Assembly (NCBI RefSeq): GCF_003390325.1
Contig: NZ_QUOK01000006.1
Span: forward strand, 186,001 to 250,000
Length of the DNA: 64,000 bases
Source: Rhodohalobacter sp. SW132
Lineage (GTDB): Bacteria > Bacteroidota > Rhodothermia > Balneolales > Balneolaceae
Direction: 5' to 3'
Below the pieces are notes generated by a model. That model searched no databases. It worked only from the letters and a program-made list of their open reading frames with translations, and was not told where the DNA came from. Positions 13,985 to 63,717 of the stretch are shown here, in pieces; position 1 is the stretch's first letter, and every line of letters begins with the position of its first letter. Both the position numbers and the translations under genes were made by a program.

Positions 13985-16501
13985 TTAATCTTCGGACCGG
14001 TGATTGATCAGGTTTTTATCCTCCAGAAACTGAACCATCGCAGGCAGAAATGTTAATGCCGAAAGCAGCGTCATTCCAATCCCGATCACAGCCATAATTC
14101 CTATCGACTGCAGCCCCGGATGTACCGTAAAGAGAAGTCCGGCAAATCCAAGCATAGTCGTAAAAGATCCTATAGTGATATGCTGTCCCGTGCTTGAAAG
14201 AACATTCCACATACTTTTTGATCCCTCATCGCGGTACCGATGAGCAAGGTGAACGCCGTTATCGCAACCAATACCTAAAATAGCCGGAAGTACTACCAGA
14301 TTGTAAAAATTGAATTTTAACCCAAAAATCAGTTGTATGCCAAACAGCCAGAGTAAACCAATTACCAGCGGGATCAGGGCAATCAGTGTCCATCGAAGCG
14401 ACATAAACGAGAGTGATATACATATAAACACGATAATGAATGTAGCAATCACCATGTAAGGGCTCTCGGTTCTCATCAGGTCGAGCATTGTGGCTGCTAC
14501 TATCGAGGTGCTTCCTGCATGATAGGTTTTACCGCTTTCCAATGTTATATCTGAGAGCTCATCTTTGAAAGCGATTGACTTCAATCCATCTGAGAGTCCC
14601 TCATTCGGATATACAATCACAAAACGGCCTATCTCTCCATCCCTGGTGATAAAACGGTTCTTCAAAAAGTCAGGAATCTGCTCTTCGGTCAGCGGTTCTG
14701 TAGTTTGCGAAGACTGCCGGAGTATATCCAGGTTCTCGTCCTGCTGGTTTACGATGAACGGATCCTGCAAAAGCTGACGAATGGTTGAAATTTTTTGGAG
14801 TTTCCTCTCCTGCATATCCTCAAACGGCGGAAAACGTTCCTGCAGGGCTTCAACATCCAGGATCATGGTATCGGGGTTGGTCCGTTTTCTTTCCCGCAGA
14901 ATATCTACAATTTCAAACACGTCTTCATCGGTATCGGCCACAATAAATGCAGGATTCCGGCGATCACTTTCGTCTACTCCACGCGTAAACTCTCTGAATT
15001 CCCGGTATTCAGGAAACTCCGGTTCCAGGTTACCGAACTCATATTCAAACTCAAGGTTCGGTGAAAAGACGGTTACAATAACGGCTGTTAATATACCGAA
15101 GGCAACAATACTCCGTGCGTAAGGAAATCGCCTGAAGAGCGGTTTCATCACTACTTTTTCAGATCTGGGCGGGAGAAGAATCCAGTTCCATCGCTCAAAT
15201 AGCACGAGCAGTGACGGCAGAACAAACAACATGCAAAAAAGTGCCAAAAGGATTCCCACACCAGCAATAAAACCAAATTCAGAGAATCCTCTGAAATCGG
15301 CGAACATCAATACAAATAATGCAAGTGCTGTTGTAAGTGCACTTACAATAATGGCCGTACCCGTTCGCTCATACGCCTGCAGGATGCTGTTTTCCACATT
15401 CAATCCGTCGGCCCTGAATTCGATATACCGGGCATAGTAGTGAATGCCGTAATCGATTCCCAGCCCAAAGAGAATCACAAAAAGAACGGAGGTCATTGTG
15501 TTGAGAACCCCGAGGTTAAAATAGGTGATTCCAAATGTCCACATCAAACTGACCAGCAGTGGTATACCGATCACAAGTACAGGAATCGGGGCGCGAATAA
15601 TATGCTGAAACAGGGAGTGTTTTTGCAGGCGGGAATCTGTGCGCTTGTAATTGATATATTTTTTGATGGTAAAGTAGAGCAGCACCAGCAGGATAACGCT
15701 TGAAAAACCTGCCGCAAAACTGTTAATCACATCACTCATAATCGAGTCGAGTTCTGCAAGGTGGCGTTTCAGGCGGCCACCAAACTGCACTTCCATTTCC
15801 GGATGAAATGAAGCGGGGTCAAGCCGTTCAATCAGTTGATCGAATTCGGCAAACATATCTTCAAGGTAGGTGATATCACTTCGCGAGCCGCTTGGATACA
15901 TTGTAAGAATAGCCAACGTACTGTCGGCATTTACCGGGTATTCTGATGGAACAAGCTGATCGTAGCTATCCTTAAAACGATCGATATTCTGCTCATCTTC
16001 TTCCTCTTCATCATCAAAATCGTCGAAATCAACCAGAAACGGATTGGCTTCCTCTTTGGCAGCCTCAATCTCTTCACGTAGATACTCTATAATCTCATCC
16101 AGTTCGTTCTCTGTAGCCAGGTAGAGGGCGTTATCTTCAAGAAATTCGGTGTCTCTGCGAAACTGGGCGCCGGTAAAGAATGGTGCGTTGCGCCGTTCAT
16201 AGTGAAGCTGCATTGCTTCTTCGGCAAGACGCTCGGCAAACGCAACGTTAGCTTCAAAACTCGGAGATCGAACCGCCACCTCCATTTCGGTTTCTCCTCC
16301 GGAAGTCTCTTGTAACTTCTCCAGCGCCAAAACATTCGGATTTGTAGGCGGGAGAAGATTTGCAAGATCTGTATCCACCGTAAGCTTTGATGCGTAAAAA
16401 CCAGAAACTAACGCAACAAGGAGCGCAATCATAATCACCCAATACGGGTGCCTGATATTCAGCTTAACGAGTGGTTTAAAATACTGGGTAATTTTTAACA
16501 T
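13985..16501 (-). CDS. RND-superfamily (MMPL/HpnN-like) exporter
   Basis: The 838-residue polytopic inner-membrane protein has two internal halves. Each has one leading helix, a large periplasmic loop and a bundle of five helices. Loop 1 contains a long acidic stretch (residues about 155-175). The transmembrane motif GLGIDYGIHYYARY in the first half is mirrored by GIGCDNGVHLAHRY in the second, the position where proton-relay residues lie in MMPL-type RND proteins. Members export lipids or hopanoids and other hydrophobic molecules without needing a TolC-type tripartite partner. No adaptor gene is adjacent, which supports a lipid-export type, but the cargo is unknown. Upstream 245 bases hold no gene. 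Confidence 0.85.
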   Translation of the reverse strand: MLKITQYFKPLVKLNIRHPYWVIMIALLVALVSGFYASKLTVDTDLANLLPPTNPNVLALEKLQETSGGETEMEVAVRSPSFEANVAFAERLAEEAMQLHYERRNAPFFTGAQFRRDTEFLEDNALYLATENELDEIIEYLREEIEAAKEEANPFLVDFDDFDDEEEEDEQNIDRFKDSYDQLVPSEYPVNADSTLAILTMYPSGSRSDITYLEDMFAEFDQLIERLDPASFHPEMEVQFGGRLKRHLAELDSIMSDVINSFAAGFSSVILLVLLYFTIKKYINYKRTDSRLQKHSLFQHIIRAPIPVLVIGIPLLVSLMWTFGITYFNLGVLNTMTSVLFVILFGLGIDYGIHYYARYIEFRADGLNVENSILQAYERTGTAIIVSALTTALALFVLMFADFRGFSEFGFIAGVGILLALFCMLFVLPSLLVLFERWNWILLPPRSEKVVMKPLFRRFPYARSIVAFGILTAVIVTVFSPNLEFEYEFGNLEPEFPEYREFREFTRGVDESDRRNPAFIVADTDEDVFEIVDILRERKRTNPDTMILDVEALQERFPPFEDMQERKLQKISTIRQLLQDPFIVNQQDENLDILRQSSQTTEPLTEEQIPDFLKNRFITRDGEIGRFVIVYPNEGLSDGLKSIAFKDELSDITLESGKTYHAGSTSIVAATMLDLMRTESPYMVIATFIIVFICISLSFMSLRWTLIALIPLVIGLLWLFGIQLIFGLKFNFYNLVVLPAILGIGCDNGVHLAHRYRDEGSKSMWNVLSSTGQHITIGSFTTMLGFAGLLFTVHPGLQSIGIMAVIGIGMTLLSALTFLPAMVQFLEDKNLINHRSED

Positions 16502-16746
16502 AGTGTTGATCTGTCAGGCAGCTAAGTACAAAAAATCATACCTGCAAGGTATTGTCACAAAAGTTGTTAATTGAATAATGAGAGGCATTGATCCGCTTCG
16601 GAGTATATCCGTTGCAAGGGGTTAAGTTCTCGCAATTTTTAAGGTTGTTAGAGTCCAATACAACTTGCGGAAATGTGATTATTATGGAAGCCATCGGGTA
16701 GTTCAGAGGATTGCATCATATCATAAAACAAGCAATGAAATGTACT
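16502..16746. other. Gene-free spacer
   Basis: The region separates the DUF3047 gene's 3' end from the RND exporter's start, both on the minus strand. It has no ORF of note, no tRNA signature and no strong hairpin; it should contain the exporter's promoter. Confidence 0.35.
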
Positions 16747-17517
16747 TCAATTTCGGATAGGATGTAATTCAAAATTGTCATAATCCGCTTTTGTAAAGGA
16801 TCGGGTATCATCAGATGCGCTTAAGATCAGAAGAGCAATTGGCCGCCGCGGAGGTTTCTCACCAAAAAAGTGTTTGTAATCTTCCACCAGATTCCGCTCA
16901 AAAGTCTGCCACTCGCCCCTGTTCTCCAGTCCTGTACCTACCACCACAATACGCTGGTTGCCCCTCAATTTTGAGAATTCTGACCCAACGGGGTGTTTGG
17001 AACTCCAGGTATATCGAATTGTGATTGGTACGGTCCTGAAAAACAAGCGGCCGGTATCGAACACCACGTATACACTTGCGGCCACATCATTCCGGCTGCT
17101 GCTGTTCTCATCACCGCCTTCAGGAATATCAAAAATACGCCAATCCCACTTCAGAATCGGAGTCTCATGTATATCAAGCCCTTCTTTATCAATCAATGGG
17201 AAATTGAGATGTTTGGCTTCTATACCTTCAAACCTCAAAAATTTATTACTGTTTTCCTTTACAACACTGTACTTATATCCGCTTCTGTCGCGCTCACTGT
17301 AAGTCGCCGGTATGGCATCTCCGTCACGGTTATACCATTCGTCTGGAATAGTGCCAACTTCGTAGTGCTGAAAGTCCTCGAGATACACAACTCCGTTATC
17401 ACCAAAACGAATGTTATTAATCGCATCTCCGTCAAAATCCTGAGCAACCACCACACCGGTTATACCAAACGAAAGAAGTGCTGTGATGAATACTTTACTT
17501 ATTTCTTCTAAAAACAT
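16747..17517 (-). CDS. DUF3047 family exported protein
   Basis: The protein has 256 residues. The first 26 form a signal-peptide-like hydrophobic segment ending VVVAQ. The body matches what I know of DUF3047: LEDFQHYEVGTIPDEWYNRDGD, LKWDWRIFDIPEGGDE, DVAASVYVVFDTG, TIRYTWSS, RIVVVGTGLENRGEWQTFERN and an ending with SASDDTRSFTKADYDNFEL. The fold is probably a jelly-roll beta-sandwich; the function is not known. It lies in the periplasm or outer envelope. It is transcribed away from the HTTM-like module at 17714, with a 196-base shared upstream region. Confidence 0.78.
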   Translation of the reverse strand: MFLEEISKVFITALLSFGITGVVVAQDFDGDAINNIRFGDNGVVYLEDFQHYEVGTIPDEWYNRDGDAIPATYSERDRSGYKYSVVKENSNKFLRFEGIEAKHLNFPLIDKEGLDIHETPILKWDWRIFDIPEGGDENSSSRNDVAASVYVVFDTGRLFFRTVPITIRYTWSSKHPVGSEFSKLRGNQRIVVVGTGLENRGEWQTFERNLVEDYKHFFGEKPPRRPIALLILSASDDTRSFTKADYDNFELHPIRN

Positions 17518-17713: not shown

Positions 17714-18214
17714 ATGAATCAATCCTTTGCCAGGCGGGGCATCAAAGTAATTGGAGTTACCCTGCTGATCTATGCGCTCCTTGTTGCACCGCATGAAGGT
17801 GAATTCTGGCCATTTAGTATTTACCCGATGTTTTCCCAGGCCGGCAATCCGTGGACCCGCGCGATGGTTCTGGATGTCACCGATAAACCGGAAATGGATA
17901 TCTGGGAAGAGCACCTGCTGCAAAACCGAACTGCCGATGTGGTTCCTGTAGGAACCTATGGAGTAGACCAGATCGACTTCTCCAACTTCGTAACCAAAAC
18001 AGAACACTGGACCGAACAACGCCAGCGGGCGCTGATCCATATGTTTGGCAGCGAGGCCATTGCCGGCAGACGCTGGATGGTGACAAAAGTTCGGGGAGAA
18101 TTGATCGGGCGGGATTCGGTTGCCATTGAGATTAAGCCATTTATTCTGATTACCTCTGACAGTACCTTCACGAATCCCAACCTTCCGGCATCAGAGTATG
18201 GGAGGATTGAATAA
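17714..18214 (+). CDS. Small membrane-anchored partner of HTTM-like protein (copy 1)
   Basis: I do not recognise a named family. The 166-residue protein has one N-terminal membrane helix (residues about 9-24) followed by a soluble, probably periplasmic domain. Just after the helix it reads WPFSIYPMFS. The protein at 62591-63133 has YPFANWSMYS in the same place, so the shared motif is [WY]PFxx[YW]xM[FY]S. The stop codon overlaps the next start by one base (TAATG), as in the second copy, which suggests the two products are made in fixed ratio and act together in the membrane. No cysteine pairs or obvious catalytic residues are visible. Confidence 0.7.
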   Translation: MNQSFARRGIKVIGVTLLIYALLVAPHEGEFWPFSIYPMFSQAGNPWTRAMVLDVTDKPEMDIWEEHLLQNRTADVVPVGTYGVDQIDFSNFVTKTEHWTEQRQRALIHMFGSEAIAGRRWMVTKVRGELIGRDSVAIEIKPFILITSDSTFTNPNLPASEYGRIE

Positions 18215-19104
18215 TGAAGTGGACAGAAAAAATCTCGTATCAGCTTTTTGAGCCTGATCGTGATCAGTCACCCGGTGAAGTGATCTTCTTTAAGCTTTTC
18301 GAACTATTTGTCATCTACTATACCATACGCTTCGCCTGGGAATGGGGAATATACACCGAACTCAGAAATACAGAAGTTGTACTGGCGCTCGGAGTTGCCA
18401 ATTATTTTGATATTTCCATTTTCTTTGAGAACTATCTCGCAATTATCAACGCAGCTTTCATCACCATACTGTCGGTTGCATGCTATTTCAGGCTCGGGTA
18501 CAAATGGCAATATATGGTTGTGATGGTGCTGCTGCATGTTCAGTATGTTGCCCGCTTTTCACAGGGTGAAATTCCGCATAGCCAGAACCTGATCGGAATG
18601 TCGGTTTTATGCTTTGCGATTGGTGCCATCTGGTTTCCCGATAAGAAGCAGATGCCGCGTTTTGTGATGGGTTCAATCATCTTTTTTATAGGTTTGGGAT
18701 ATACATCAGCCTTCTTTGCAAAATTGATTGGAACCGGAATCAATTGGTATGATGGCCGTCATCTCTGGCTCTGGATTGGTGAGAAAAGCATTGATATACT
18801 CTCACGTGAAGGTGTTTACAACCCAAACTTTTTACAATCGATGGCGCTGCAAAGTACGGCTGTAGCATCAGTTATACTTCTCATTGGATGGTTCACGGAG
18901 TTTATCGGGTTTACGATGTGGTGGAAAAAGATCAGACCCTACACAACTGCCCTGCTGATCGGAATGCATTTTGGCATCACAATGACCATGAACATCCGGT
19001 TTGATGCATTCGTAATTCAACTGATCTTAGTCGGATTTCCGTGGTACATCCTCATCGATCGTTACGTAAAAACCACACCCCGGATGTTGCAAAAATGGCT
19101 CTAA
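18214..19104 (+). CDS. HTTM-like polytopic membrane protein (copy 1)
   Basis: The 296-residue protein has about eight hydrophobic segments. It resembles the HTTM domain, the horizontally transferred membrane domain seen in vitamin K-dependent gamma-carboxylase and in bacterial proteins often annotated DoxX/HTTM. Landmarks are a cytoplasmic start, FFAKLIGTGINWYDGRHLWLW in the middle, and HFGITMTMNIRF near the end. The second copy at 61641-62591 has HFSTLFTMNIFF, giving HF[GS]xxxTMNIxF. It is coupled to the preceding gene by a 1-nt overlap. The catalytic lysine and the luminal carboxylase domain of the eukaryotic enzyme are not apparent, so no reaction can be assigned. Confidence 0.68.
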   Translation: MKWTEKISYQLFEPDRDQSPGEVIFFKLFELFVIYYTIRFAWEWGIYTELRNTEVVLALGVANYFDISIFFENYLAIINAAFITILSVACYFRLGYKWQYMVVMVLLHVQYVARFSQGEIPHSQNLIGMSVLCFAIGAIWFPDKKQMPRFVMGSIIFFIGLGYTSAFFAKLIGTGINWYDGRHLWLWIGEKSIDILSREGVYNPNFLQSMALQSTAVASVILLIGWFTEFIGFTMWWKKIRPYTTALLIGMHFGITMTMNIRFDAFVIQLILVGFPWYILIDRYVKTTPRMLQKWL

Positions 19105-60479: not shown

Positions 60480-60857
60480 TTAAAGTCTGTTAACGATTCG
60501 TTTGATTCCTGTTTTTAACAGTTCTTCGTTGAAGTTAATTAAAAGACCAAGTTTCAGATTGGTCAGCTTCAAATATGTCAACAACTGTTTGTAGTGTACG
60601 GGTGCCAATAGCTGAACTGATTTTAATTCGATTATCAATTTATTTTCAATAATTACATCAGCAACAAACCCAACACCCATTTTTTTATCTTTCCAGTATA
60701 CGGGTATCGGATTTTGCCGTTGATATTCAAACCCGGAACACTCCAGTTCGTGACACAGTACTTCTTCATAAACAGACTCAAACAAACCAGGCCCCAAACC
60801 ACGGTGTATATTAAAACAGATATCAAGTACGTGTTTTGAAAGTTCATTCTCGATCAT
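60480..60857 (-). CDS. GxxExxY protein
   Basis: The 125-residue protein carries the family signature G24-L-F-E27-S-V-Y30 and HRGLGPG just before it. It then has FVADVIIENKLIIELKS, where D67 and E77-L-K79 fit a PD-(D/E)xK nuclease-like core, and closes with LKLGLLINFNEELLKTGIKRI. The family (TIGR04256) is common as isolated genes in intergenic repeats of Bacteroidota and environmental bacteria, and its function is not established. Here it is bracketed by short repeats (60447-60473 and 60955-61052), in line with that habit and with possible mobility. Alone on the minus strand. Confidence 0.9.
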   Translation of the reverse strand: MIENELSKHVLDICFNIHRGLGPGLFESVYEEVLCHELECSGFEYQRQNPIPVYWKDKKMGVGFVADVIIENKLIIELKSVQLLAPVHYKQLLTYLKLTNLKLGLLINFNEELLKTGIKRIVNRL

Positions 60858-61057: not shown

Positions 61058-61498
61058 TTACATACAAGCCGGAGGCTCAGGTGCCGCTTCGTACCCGATT
61101 GTCCCTAACCTGAACCCATTCGGACAAACCCGAGCCGATACCATGGTATTTCTGCTATCCTGAATAGAGCCGGTAACGATGAACTCGCCCGGCTGTATGG
61201 CCGATATAATATAAACGCCATTCTCATTTGAAGCTTCCAAAACATTGCCATCCACCACGCGTCCGCTGAAATTGAATTTTGTGAAATCTATATCCTGGAA
61301 TGTTCGTCCGCCTCCACCCAGCATAGCGGGACGAAAATAATATCCCTGGGCAGAAGACGCGACAAGGGCAAGATCAAGCTGCAGGGCATCGCGTGAGGCA
61401 GCATCTGCAGCGGCTGAAAAGGTATTGAGAGCTACAACTGCGGCAATTCCCACAATTATGGTAACCAATATAACGAGAAGTAACTGTTGCTGACCCAT
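61058..61498 (-). CDS. Pilin-like protein with LGGGG motif (paralogue 1)
   Basis: The 146-residue protein opens with MGQQQ followed by an uninterrupted hydrophobic stretch LLLVILVTIIVGIAAVVAL (6-24), like the N-terminal helix of type IV pilins and pseudopilins but with a very short leader and no F/E at the usual places. After the helix come SSAQGYYFRPAMLGGGGRTF and a beta-rich tail with VPNGF/CPNGF and a final Cys. The paralogue at 63217 is the same through the helix and shares YY(F/M)RP.MLGGGGRTF. I have seen the YY.RP..LGGGG.SF pattern in uncharacterised Bacteroidota proteins. A Shine-Dalgarno GGAGG precedes the start, unusual for this window. Two cysteines could form a disulfide outside the cell. 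Confidence 0.7.
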   Translation of the reverse strand: MGQQQLLLVILVTIIVGIAAVVALNTFSAAADAASRDALQLDLALVASSAQGYYFRPAMLGGGGRTFQDIDFTKFNFSGRVVDGNVLEASNENGVYIISAIQPGEFIVTGSIQDSRNTMVSARVCPNGFRLGTIGYEAAPEPPACM

Positions 61499-61640: not shown

Positions 61641-62591
61641 TCATCTCGTAAATGTTACATTAGAAATGACTCTGATCGATTTATTTGCAGCAGTCATAAC
61701 TCTTGTGGTGATGGTTTTATTGACTTTCAAAAACCGGTAATGAACACCCTGCCAATTCACGTAGAGTACAAGTATTAATAAGATATTTTCCCAGAAAAAA
61801 ATATTCATTGTAAAAAGTGTCGAAAAGTGAAACGGAATCATAACTACGAGCCACGAATATCTCAAATATCGATTAAACAGAATATAAGGCGTTAAAACCT
61901 CCATCATAGTAACTATAAAAAAACCAGTTTTTAACAAAACAATGACTAAATCAAACTCAATTAATACCAGGCCTAGTTCAAATCCATAATTAGAATAATT
62001 AAGGCTATTACGTACTGTATAGATTAGCAACGCATCATTTGTAAAAATCTCCATCCCACCTCTCACAAACCTTCGTATTCCAATAAATGCATAAACAAAT
62101 GAAAAAGTGGTTGCGGTCAGTATAATCGGAAATGAGTATTTATTGGGACTCTGATTCATTTCGTCTTTACCGAAAAGAGACCACCTGTTTGACGCTGCTG
62201 AAAAGCACAGGAAAATTGCAGCAAAATAGATAACAATCTGCCCATGATTTATATATCCATTGAAACCTCTTATAACGAAATCGAGGAGAAATATAAAGAT
62301 CACTGTTACAATGGCAACGGTTCTGAATGGACGGACACCAGCTATAAGTAAGCTGCAGCCAATGATTGTGCCGATTTTCAGGAATAACAAGAACGGGGCT
62401 GATAGAATAATGTGAAGGGTTTCTGGCTGCAGGAAGTTTATCACCGCGTGAAAACCCCATGGTTCAAAAATCTCTATCGGGAGTTGTGCATAATTTGAGG
62501 CAGAAAATAGTATTGCTATAATCAACCAGCACCCAAATACAGTGACCCGAAGGAATGCCAGAGTTTCCTGGCTTTTATATGCGGCGAGCAT
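61641..62591 (-). CDS. HTTM-like polytopic membrane protein (copy 2)
   Basis: The 316-residue protein has about eight or nine hydrophobic helices. The motif HFSTLFTMNIFF near the end matches HFGITMTMNIRF in copy 1, and the segments GFHAVINFLQPE, RGFNGYINHGQIVIYFAAIF and the helix-loop pattern fit the HTTM/DoxX-like fold. Overall identity with copy 1 is low by eye, so the duplication is old or the two were acquired separately. The start overlaps the stop of the small partner gene by one base, exactly as in copy 1. Its reaction or cargo is not known. Confidence 0.65.
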   Translation of the reverse strand: MLAAYKSQETLAFLRVTVFGCWLIIAILFSASNYAQLPIEIFEPWGFHAVINFLQPETLHIILSAPFLLFLKIGTIIGCSLLIAGVRPFRTVAIVTVIFIFLLDFVIRGFNGYINHGQIVIYFAAIFLCFSAASNRWSLFGKDEMNQSPNKYSFPIILTATTFSFVYAFIGIRRFVRGGMEIFTNDALLIYTVRNSLNYSNYGFELGLVLIEFDLVIVLLKTGFFIVTMMEVLTPYILFNRYLRYSWLVVMIPFHFSTLFTMNIFFWENILLILVLYVNWQGVHYRFLKVNKTITTRVMTAANKSIRVISNVTFTR

Positions 62592-63133
62592 TAGTTCGTG
62601 TGGTAGGTATAATAGTTATACTTTACGATGCTTTTATCGTCCAGTGAATTCTCTTCATATAATACCCCATTGATCCTTAAAAATACGATTTTAACTTCTG
62701 GGTTCTCTTCACTGTAGATGTCTACCAGGCTGGCAATTAATTTTTCAAACGGATGATTTGAATGTTCAGGTTTTACTCTCTTTTTCTCTCTTAAATTGTC
62801 AGCCAGATCTGATTCGAGGTCCGCAATTTTCTTCATAAAAGCTCTCGGACTCGTTTTGGAAATAATAGAAAAAGGGTAATGAAAACGTTCACCCTCATCC
62901 GTTTCAAGTATGAATTCAACATAATTCAATCCCGGGTTAGCAGAGCTATACATTGACCAATTGGCGAATGGATAGGTTTTTTTATCATCCGAAATTAACT
63001 GCCCGGCAACACCCCCCCCTAAAACCAAAGCTGTTATTACAATATTTGAAATTGTCCTTTGACTATCAGGAAGCTTTTTAAATAGCAGCCACACAAAGGT
63101 GATGACTACCACAAGAATTATTGAGAATTCCAT
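62591..63133 (-). CDS. Small membrane-anchored partner of HTTM-like protein (copy 2)
   Basis: The 180-residue protein has two hydrophobic segments (about 3-17 and 31-47), then YPFANWSMYSSANPG, which matches WPFSIYPMFSQAGNP of the protein at 17714. The rest is a charged, helical and beta-rich soluble domain with YPFSIISKTSPRAFMKKI and a region VKIVFLRINGVLYEEN. It is not a named family that I recognise. The 1-nt stop/start overlap with the HTTM-like gene suggests fixed-ratio production of a membrane complex. It is preceded by the terminator of the pilin-like gene, so this pair has its own promoter between 63134 and about 63170, or is read through. Confidence 0.65.
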   Translation of the reverse strand: MEFSIILVVVITFVWLLFKKLPDSQRTISNIVITALVLGGGVAGQLISDDKKTYPFANWSMYSSANPGLNYVEFILETDEGERFHYPFSIISKTSPRAFMKKIADLESDLADNLREKKRVKPEHSNHPFEKLIASLVDIYSEENPEVKIVFLRINGVLYEENSLDDKSIVKYNYYTYHTN

Positions 63134-63167
63134 TTGAAAAATTTTTTAGCACATCTAAACTTCAAAC

Positions 63168-63197
63168 AAAAAAGGCTCCCGAAGGAGCCTTTTTTTT
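63168..63197. terminator. Bidirectional rho-independent terminator after pilin-like gene
   Basis: AAAGGCTCC (63171-63179) pairs perfectly with GGAGCCTTT (63184-63192) around a CGAA tetraloop, with an A run before and a T run after. It begins about 24 bases after the stop of the pilin-like gene at 63217 on the minus strand, so that gene is a single unit. Confidence 0.92.
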
Positions 63198-63216: not shown

Positions 63217-63717
63217 TTAATCAGCAGTTGTAGTTTCAGGTTCCCCGGTTGCACCAAGTTCGAAATTATTCGGACCAACTGCTGCTGTTATTTGATCATT
63301 AGCATCTGTACAACCCGAACCATCAATTCCTGGTGTAAAACCTTCGCAGCTTGCTGGATCAGCACGTATAGTAAAACTTTGTGGAGTGACATCCTCAATT
63401 ACGTATCTGCCATTCTCATTTACTGCGGTTCGACTTTCTGTACCACCGACTTCAGTAGCTGGAAATGCCATCCCATCAAAAGAAATACCACCACTTTGAG
63501 GTGTTCCAGTACCATCAAATGTGCGGCCACCGCCACCCAGCATACCAGGTCTCATGTAATAACCCTGTGCTGCAGATGCAAGAGCTGCGATATCATTATT
63601 TACAGCGTCGATGTTTGCCTGATCAGCTGCTGAGCCGAAGGTGTTAATTGCTACTACCGTGGCGATTCCCACGATGATTGTTACCAAGATTACGAGTAAG
63701 AGTTGTTGTTGTCCCAT
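63217..63717 (-). CDS. Pilin-like protein with LGGGG motif (paralogue 2)
   Basis: The 166-residue protein starts MGQQQ then LLLVILVTIIVGIATVVAI, the same first 19 residues as the paralogue at 61058. It continues NTFGSAADQANIDAVNNDIAALASAAQGYYMRPGMLGGGGRTF, in order helix, loop and glycine motif, and ends in a beta-rich domain with two cysteines (ASCEGFTPGIDGSGC) that may form a disulfide. The identical opening implies one processing or export route for both. The strong terminator and isolated promoter region suggest it is well expressed, as pilins usually are. No pilin-assembly ATPase, prepilin peptidase or platform gene is in the window. Confidence 0.7.
   Translation of the reverse strand: MGQQQLLLVILVTIIVGIATVVAINTFGSAADQANIDAVNNDIAALASAAQGYYMRPGMLGGGGRTFDGTGTPQSGGISFDGMAFPATEVGGTESRTAVNENGRYVIEDVTPQSFTIRADPASCEGFTPGIDGSGCTDANDQITAAVGPNNFELGATGEPETTTAD

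What the first reader, a model, noticed from the sequence alone, without database searches (positions are those of the whole stretch)
61641..63133. Recurring two-gene membrane module: [WY]PFxx[YW]xM[FY]S protein coupled to an HTTM-like protein
The pair occurs twice in 64 kb (17714-19104 and 61641-63133). In both the small gene comes first, its stop overlaps the next start by one base, the small protein has WPFSIYPMFS or YPFANWSMYS right after its membrane segment, and the large protein has HF[GS]xxxTMNIxF. Shared order, coupling and motifs despite low overall similarity argue for a conserved functional unit, perhaps a membrane enzyme and its partner. I know of no described function for it.
Basis: partly seen in the sequence, partly recalled or inferred. 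Interest (0 to 1): 0.6.

Follow-up and report, generated by a model that had tools for sequence, protein, structure and literature searches.

The report
Split two-gene vitamin-K-carboxylase-like membrane module
Two neighbouring genes, found twice in this stretch of a bacterial genome, encode the two halves of a membrane protein built like the human vitamin-K-dependent carboxylase, with the part that should complete the active site made as a separate small protein; I found no description of this family, and one copy sits between genes for surface filaments that it may modify.

Summary
Both pairs are real (17714-19104 and 61641-63133). The large proteins belong to the HTTM/vitamin K-dependent carboxylase (VKGC) fold although no Pfam or NCBIfam model reaches them. 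The AlphaFold model of the first large protein (pLDDT 93.8) credibly matches only human GGCX in the PDB (top 8 hits, probability 0.95-1.00; all others 0.12 or less). All three large-protein families (A = first pair, C = second pair, B = a third pair found in relatives) align with single-chain HTTM fusion proteins that match VKGC. The small gene accompanies the A large gene in 41 of 41 genomes; 57 others have neither pair (p = 1e-28). Four natural fusions carry the HTTM part and a WP[FV]AVYPTFA motif in one chain. GGCX's glutamate-pocket residue H160 has a His counterpart in A, B and C; the catalytic base K218 is Lys in A and B but Arg in C. In GGCX the position just after the last membrane helix (Y395-M402, 'YGYSWDMM') lines the vitamin K/Glu pocket. 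I infer that the small subunit completes the active site in trans. Pair C lies between two type IV pilin-like genes. Activity and substrate are inferred, not shown. New variant of a known kind.

The parts
62591..63133 (-). pair C small subunit (P0003, 180 aa): N-terminal membrane segment(s), motif, extracytoplasmic domain
   Evidence: homologue L002 in G056
62945..62974 (-). motif YPFANWSMYS (residues 54-63), proposed counterpart of the GGCX TMD-PBD linker Y395-M402
   Evidence: sequence
61641..62591 (-). pair C large subunit (P0004, 316 aa), HTTM/VKGC-like membrane protein; H116 (codon 62244-62246) aligns with GGCX H160, R174 (codon 62070-62072) with K218, H255 (codon 61827-61829) with the conserved FH
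17714..18214 (+). pair A small subunit (P0001, 166 aa)
17807..17836 (+). motif WPFSIYPMFS (residues 32-41); contains the only low-confidence stretch (36-39) of the model of the lone subunit
18214..19104 (+). pair A large subunit (P0002, 296 aa); H122 (codon 18577-18579) aligns with GGCX H160, K170 (codon 18721-18723) with K218, H252 (codon 18967-18969) with the conserved FH; all three invariant in 60 sequences
61058..61498 (-). pilin-like protein MGQQQLLLVILVTIIVGIA..., downstream of pair C on the same strand
63217..63717 (-). second pilin-like protein, upstream of pair C on the same strand
63167..63195 (-). strong hairpin with UUCG loop and U-tract between the upstream pilin gene and pair C (terminator-like; about 34 bp before the small gene's start codon)
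   Evidence: z -2.95; one search lists no sigma-70-like site on this strand in the gap
13985..17517 (-). MMPL-family transporter (13985-16501) and DUF3047 protein (16747-17517), divergent to pair A, conserved neighbours of pair A

Best explanation
Each pair is a two-subunit, split version of a VKGC-type HTTM protein. The large subunit is the membrane domain with the reduced-quinone pocket. The small subunit is anchored by its own membrane helix and carries, just outside the membrane, the aromatic-x-Met motif that in single-chain GGCX follows the last helix and closes the quinone/glutamate pocket, plus a small extracytoplasmic domain that would recognise the substrate. The two assemble so that the active site is completed in trans. 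The complex most likely uses reduced menaquinone to modify an extracytoplasmic substrate; for pair C the best candidate is the neighbouring type IV pilin-like proteins. Shown here: fold of the A large subunit, family relations of the large subunits, obligate pairing of A, natural fusions, conserved active-site positions. Inferred: assembly geometry, enzymatic activity, cofactor, substrate. My separate estimates: VKGC/HTTM fold of the large subunits 0.95; small subunit equals the C-terminal part of single-chain HTTM proteins 0.85; quinone-using enzyme on an extracytoplasmic substrate 0.5; pilin as the substrate of pair C 0.35.
For: GGCX structures are the only credible PDB matches of the A large model. 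hhalign: the fused HTTM family F2 matches VKGC 97.2%, A 96.3%, B 99.7%, C 98.2%; B vs VKGC 95.7%, B vs C 94.0%. The A profile finds P0004 in the own genome (E 9.5e-5), the C profile finds A and B members, and B members pass the Pfam HTTM cut-off. A small and A large: 41 genomes with both, 57 with no A pair; the one divergent large-only hit is the fused protein in G035. Four fusions carry [ST]WP[FV]AVYPTFA right after the last helix, and their C-terminal part matches the A small profile (86.8%, E 4e-6). The H160 position is His in A, B, C and VKGC but varies (H, N, Q or L) in the other HTTM proteins aligned; K218 is Lys in A, B and VKGC. GGCX Y395, S398, M401 and M402 line or brace the pocket (PMC12589487; numbering checked). 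Pair C or another HTTM protein sits at a pilin locus in 4 of about 44 pilin loci looked at, where 8 genomes hold a Wzy_C (O-antigen-ligase-like) gene.
Against: The pair C large subunit has Arg at the K218 position, so classical epoxidation chemistry is doubtful there. The small proteins show no profile link to the VKGC lumenal domain, Pfam VKGC_lumenal_dom did not appear, and the A small model matches nothing in the PDB. The window genome and nearly all genomes of its family lack a VKOR homologue, so no standard vitamin K cycle is evident. TM-scores to GGCX are modest (0.51-0.56). The C small protein is tied to the rest only by motif, position and gene order. The pilin link rests on four loci and was noticed after the fact.
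Confidence: 0.6

Rival explanations
1. SdpAB-like maturation pair: like SdpA/SdpB of Bacillus, the two proteins process or help release a secreted peptide or protein rather than modify a side chain.
For: SdpA and SdpB are both needed to process SdpC (PMC6818787), the operon order is sdpABC, and SdpB-family scores (below the curated cut-off) appear for other HTTM proteins with small partners (L165, L229, L168). Small-gene-first order is the same.
Against: Neither P0002, P0004 nor other A members score against TIGR04033 or an SdpA model; the VKGC-like His is kept in A, B and C but not in the SdpB-like proteins.
Confidence: 0.2
2. Glycan or lipid modifying enzyme: the HTTM pair acts on a polyprenyl-linked or secreted polysaccharide.
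For: Pairs A and B and two of the fused proteins lie among glycosyltransferases, Wzx-like flippases and an MMPL transporter in many genomes.
Against: Pair A in the window lies between recO/MMPL/DUF3047 and rlmN without glycan genes at its side; pair C lies at pilins.
Confidence: 0.15
3. Quinone-linked thiol-disulfide unit: the HTTM protein couples quinone to disulfide chemistry of exported proteins.
For: An HTTM-like protein with a small partner is fused to a DCC1-like thiol-disulfide domain (L168); the three pilins next to pair C have two or four Cys (3/3 against 13/63 elsewhere, p 0.012).
Against: The small proteins looked at have no Cys, and the two Cys of the A large protein are not among its invariant residues.
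Confidence: 0.05

Closest known systems
Vitamin K-dependent gamma-carboxylase (GGCX/VKGC; Pfam HTTM PF05090 + VKGC_lumenal_dom PF22777)
   Same: Fold of the membrane domain, His at the H160 position, Lys at the K218 position (A, B), conserved FH of TM7, aromatic-x-Met motif after a membrane helix
   Different: Two genes instead of one; the small protein's outer domain is not recognisably VKGC_lumenal_dom; Arg instead of the catalytic Lys in C; no VKOR in the genome
SdpA/SdpB of the SDP cannibalism toxin system (NCBIfam TIGR04033 for SdpB)
   Same: Small gene followed by HTTM-type gene, both required for one function
   Different: No sequence score to the Sdp models; different residue at the H160 position in SdpB-like proteins; no SdpC-like gene noticed
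DUF5819 (PF19136) + HTTM pairs
   Same: Small membrane-anchored protein with a QQWSMFAPYPP motif, start of the large gene overlapping the small gene by 4 bases (L229)
   Different: Different motif; A and C small proteins do not match PF19136

Membership tests
Pfam HTTM (PF05090) | score above the curated cut-off | tested here: not met
   No hit for P0002, P0004 or any of 33 large proteins; met by pair B large proteins and by the full VKGC of the same genome
Pfam HTTM (PF05090) | VKGC-type membrane fold | tested here: met
   A large model: the top 8 PDB hits are GGCX, prob 0.95-1.00
VKGC enzymes | catalytic base Lys218 and Glu-pocket His160 | tested here: inconclusive
   Both present in A and B; in C His present, Lys replaced by Arg
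VKGC enzymes | VKGC lumenal domain in the same chain | tested here: not met
   Separate small protein; no PF22777 match, no profile link, no PDB match
VKGC enzymes | vitamin K-dependent carboxylation of Glu | not testable with these tools
   needs biochemistry; VKOR absent from the genome
SdpA/SdpB | match to the NCBIfam SdpA/SdpB models | tested here: not met
SdpA/SdpB | SdpC-like peptide gene in the operon | not tested
   none noticed in neighbourhood listings but no SdpC model was searched for specifically
DUF5819-HTTM pair | small protein matches PF19136 | tested here: not met

The most novel reading that the evidence does not exclude
A previously undescribed class of obligate two-subunit VKGC-type enzymes, in which the pocket-closing linker and substrate domain are supplied in trans, carries out a quinone-driven modification of bacterial surface proteins, including type IV pilins; GGCX would be the single-chain form of a wider family of split enzymes.
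Probability: 0.3. Interest if true: 0.85.

Novelty: new variant of a known kind. Interest (0 to 1): 0.6.

Why it matters
Bacterial HTTM proteins are widespread and, apart from SdpAB and VKGC itself, I know of no assigned functions for them (my own knowledge). Showing that two unannotated protein families are halves of a VKGC-like module gives a concrete structural hypothesis (active site completed in trans), named residues to mutate (H122, K170, small M39), and a candidate substrate (pilins next to pair C). It would also bear on how the vitamin K carboxylase arose.

Tried and rejected
Direct family assignment (Pfam, NCBIfam, 66 proteins): nothing significant. Sequence search of the PDB with P0004 and with the two A profiles: nothing convincing. 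Profile link of the small proteins to the VKGC lumenal domain: none. Profile link of the C small protein to the A and B small proteins and to the fused proteins: none; a pairwise shuffle test of P0003 against L228 was also negative. A fusion suspected in L068 is a frame artefact. Glu content of pilins near HTTM genes is not raised. VKOR does not co-occur. The literature search found no paper naming DUF5819 or 'HTTM domain-containing' (the library holds open papers only).

Full report
Observation. Within 64 kb a relaxed form of the small-protein motif occurs only in these two genes. None of the four window proteins, nor the other members of the two 33-row alignments, matches a Pfam or NCBIfam model convincingly. 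The window appears to come from a Balneolaceae genome: the closest named records with the same gene order are Balneolaceae.

Naming. I call the first pair (17714-19104) A, the pair in the finding (61641-63133) C, and a third pair found in relatives B.

Strict pairing. Searching 98 related genomes with profiles of the A small and A large proteins separately gives the same 41 genomes for both, and no A pair in the 57 others; one of those has a divergent large hit (G035), which turns out to be a fused protein (Fisher p = 1.4e-28). The genome-collection scan found A pairs beyond Balneolaceae, in records labelled Salinivenus, Salinibacter, KSB1, Gemmatimonadaceae, Polyangia, Saprospiraceae and Reichenbachiella (one Saprospiraceae match is partial). 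The two genes overlap in 44 of 67 loci measured. Pair C is rare: only the window genome and G056 of 245 class members have it, again as a pair, with YPFVQWDMYS.

What the large protein is. AlphaFold2 with a 60-sequence alignment gives pLDDT 93.8 for P0002. Against 350,542 PDB chains its first eight hits are all human vitamin K-dependent gamma-carboxylase, probability 0.95-1.00, over the full length; every other listed hit is at 0.12 or below. The Foldseek E-values (0.04-0.3) and TM-scores (0.51-0.56) are modest, so the fold is related but divergent. For C the evidence is by profile: C to B 94.0% over 253 columns, B to the VKGC proteins of Balneolaceae 95.7%, and C to a family of fused proteins 98.2% over 262 columns; those fused proteins match VKGC at 97.2%, A at 96.3% and B at 99.7%. 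The A profile also finds P0004 in the own genome (E 9.5e-5). Pair B large proteins pass the Pfam HTTM cut-off. In a tree, A, B, C and the fused F2 family each form a supported group; the split between them and VKGC plus SdpB-like proteins has moderate support (85/82, midpoint root only).

Active site. The genome's own single-chain VKGC aligns with human GGCX, which fixes the numbering: H160, K218, W223, Y395, S398, W399, M401, M402. In the mixed alignment the H160 position is His in all A, B, C and VKGC proteins and is H, N, Q or L in the other HTTM proteins; the K218 position is Lys in A, B, VKGC and the other HTTM proteins, and Arg in both C proteins. In A, H122, K170 and H252 are invariant in 60 sequences. 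In GGCX, K218 deprotonates reduced vitamin K; N159, H160 and Y395 hold the glutamate side chain; M401/M402 in the linker after the last membrane helix help to separate the two pockets (PMC12589487; reviewed in PMC9146348).

What the small protein is. Its most conserved element, WPFSIYPMFS (A), YPFANWSMYS or YPFVQWDMYS (C), PWPAFVFPGF (B), follows directly after its membrane helix. Four proteins of 539-571 aa (L228, L137, L142, L153) carry an HTTM domain and then, right after the last helix, WPFAVYPTFAS or WPVAVYPTFAG. Their C-terminal part matches the A small profile at 86.8%, E 4e-6, over 116 columns. In a class-level relative (G096) a B-type large protein is fused to an A small protein and followed by the A large gene. 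So the A small protein corresponds to the C-terminal part of a single-chain HTTM protein. The position of the motif equals that of the GGCX linker 'YGYSWDMM'; L002 even has W-D-M. Homology of the outer domain to the VKGC lumenal domain is not shown. In the model of the lone A small protein only residues 36-39, inside the motif, form a stretch below pLDDT 50, which fits a segment that needs its partner. The C small protein is tied to the others only by motif, position, order and coupling.

Context. Pair A is conserved near an MMPL transporter gene (47 of 78 loci), often DUF3047 (26), and in many genomes near glycosyltransferase and Wzx-like genes. Pair C lies on one strand between two genes for MGQQQLLLVILVTIIVGIA pilin-like proteins. 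In other Balneolaceae such genes lie beside T2SSF, T2SSE and PilO genes of a type IV pilus; the 'pilin' label rests on this and on the N-terminal segment, not on a Pfam match. In G056 pair C sits between the PilC-like gene and the pilin; in G027 an HTTM relic sits there; in G031 a fused HTTM protein follows two pilins. In eight genomes (G056 among them) a Wzy_C protein sits at this place; by my own knowledge that family includes pilin-glycosylating ligases. A strong hairpin with a U-tract separates the upstream pilin from pair C, leaving about 34 bases before the start codon and no sigma-70-like site on that strand, so read-through from the pilin promoter is plausible; promoter types of this phylum are not covered by that scan.

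Mechanism: what is shown and what is inferred. Shown: fold (A), relation of the large subunits, obligate pairing (A), natural fusions, conserved pocket positions. Inferred: the small subunit completes the pocket in trans; reduced menaquinone is the cofactor; the substrate is extracytoplasmic, for C possibly a pilin. Against a full vitamin K cycle: no VKOR homologue in the window genome, and Arg at the base position in C.

Novelty. Two-gene HTTM systems are known (SdpA/SdpB) and single-chain VKGC is known; these families have no model in Pfam or NCBIfam and no paper on them was found. I file it as a new variant of a known kind, not as a VKGC or an Sdp system, because defining features of both were tested and not met.

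Noticed in passing
L043:8068-9683, L063:102-1732, L144:805-2382 and others: A third, divergent pair (B: small with SEPWP[AS]F..P[AG]F, large about 370 aa, Pfam HTTM) lies convergent to pair A in many Balneolaceae.
   Followed up: yes
L230:5146-7613 (G096): B-type large protein fused to an A-type small protein, followed by the A large gene: the A and B modules may act together.
   Followed up: partly
L228, L137, L142, L153: Single-chain HTTM proteins of 539-571 aa with WP[FV]AVYPTFA after the last helix; L228 and L137 lie among glycosyltransferase genes.
   Followed up: partly
L229:5920-7385; L165:1435-2876; L168:1025-2694: Other small-first HTTM pairs: DUF5819 + HTTM, a small protein with DWSFGFFSQ + SdpB-like protein, and a small protein + HTTM-DCC1 fusion.
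   Followed up: partly
L151:8762-10228 (G000:C6, about 36 kb before the window): The genome also has a full-length VKGC-like protein (HTTM + VKGC lumenal domain), but no VKOR homologue was found.
   Followed up: partly
L148, L193, L194, L196, L200, L205, L211, L218: A Wzy_C (O-antigen-ligase-like) gene sits beside the pilin gene of the type IV pilus locus in eight genomes, suggesting a slot for pilin-modifying enzymes.
   Followed up: partly
window 61058-61498 and 63217-63717; L148:12558-13022: The three pilins next to pair C have two or four cysteines, most other Balneolaceae pilins of this type have none (3/3 against 13/63, p 0.012).
   Followed up: partly
L074 (Polyangia record); L085/L086: Tandem A pairs in one locus, and two copies with the same neighbours about 92 kb apart on one contig.
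   Followed up: no
window 60480-60857: PDDEXK_3-family protein next to the pilin/pair C island.
   Followed up: no
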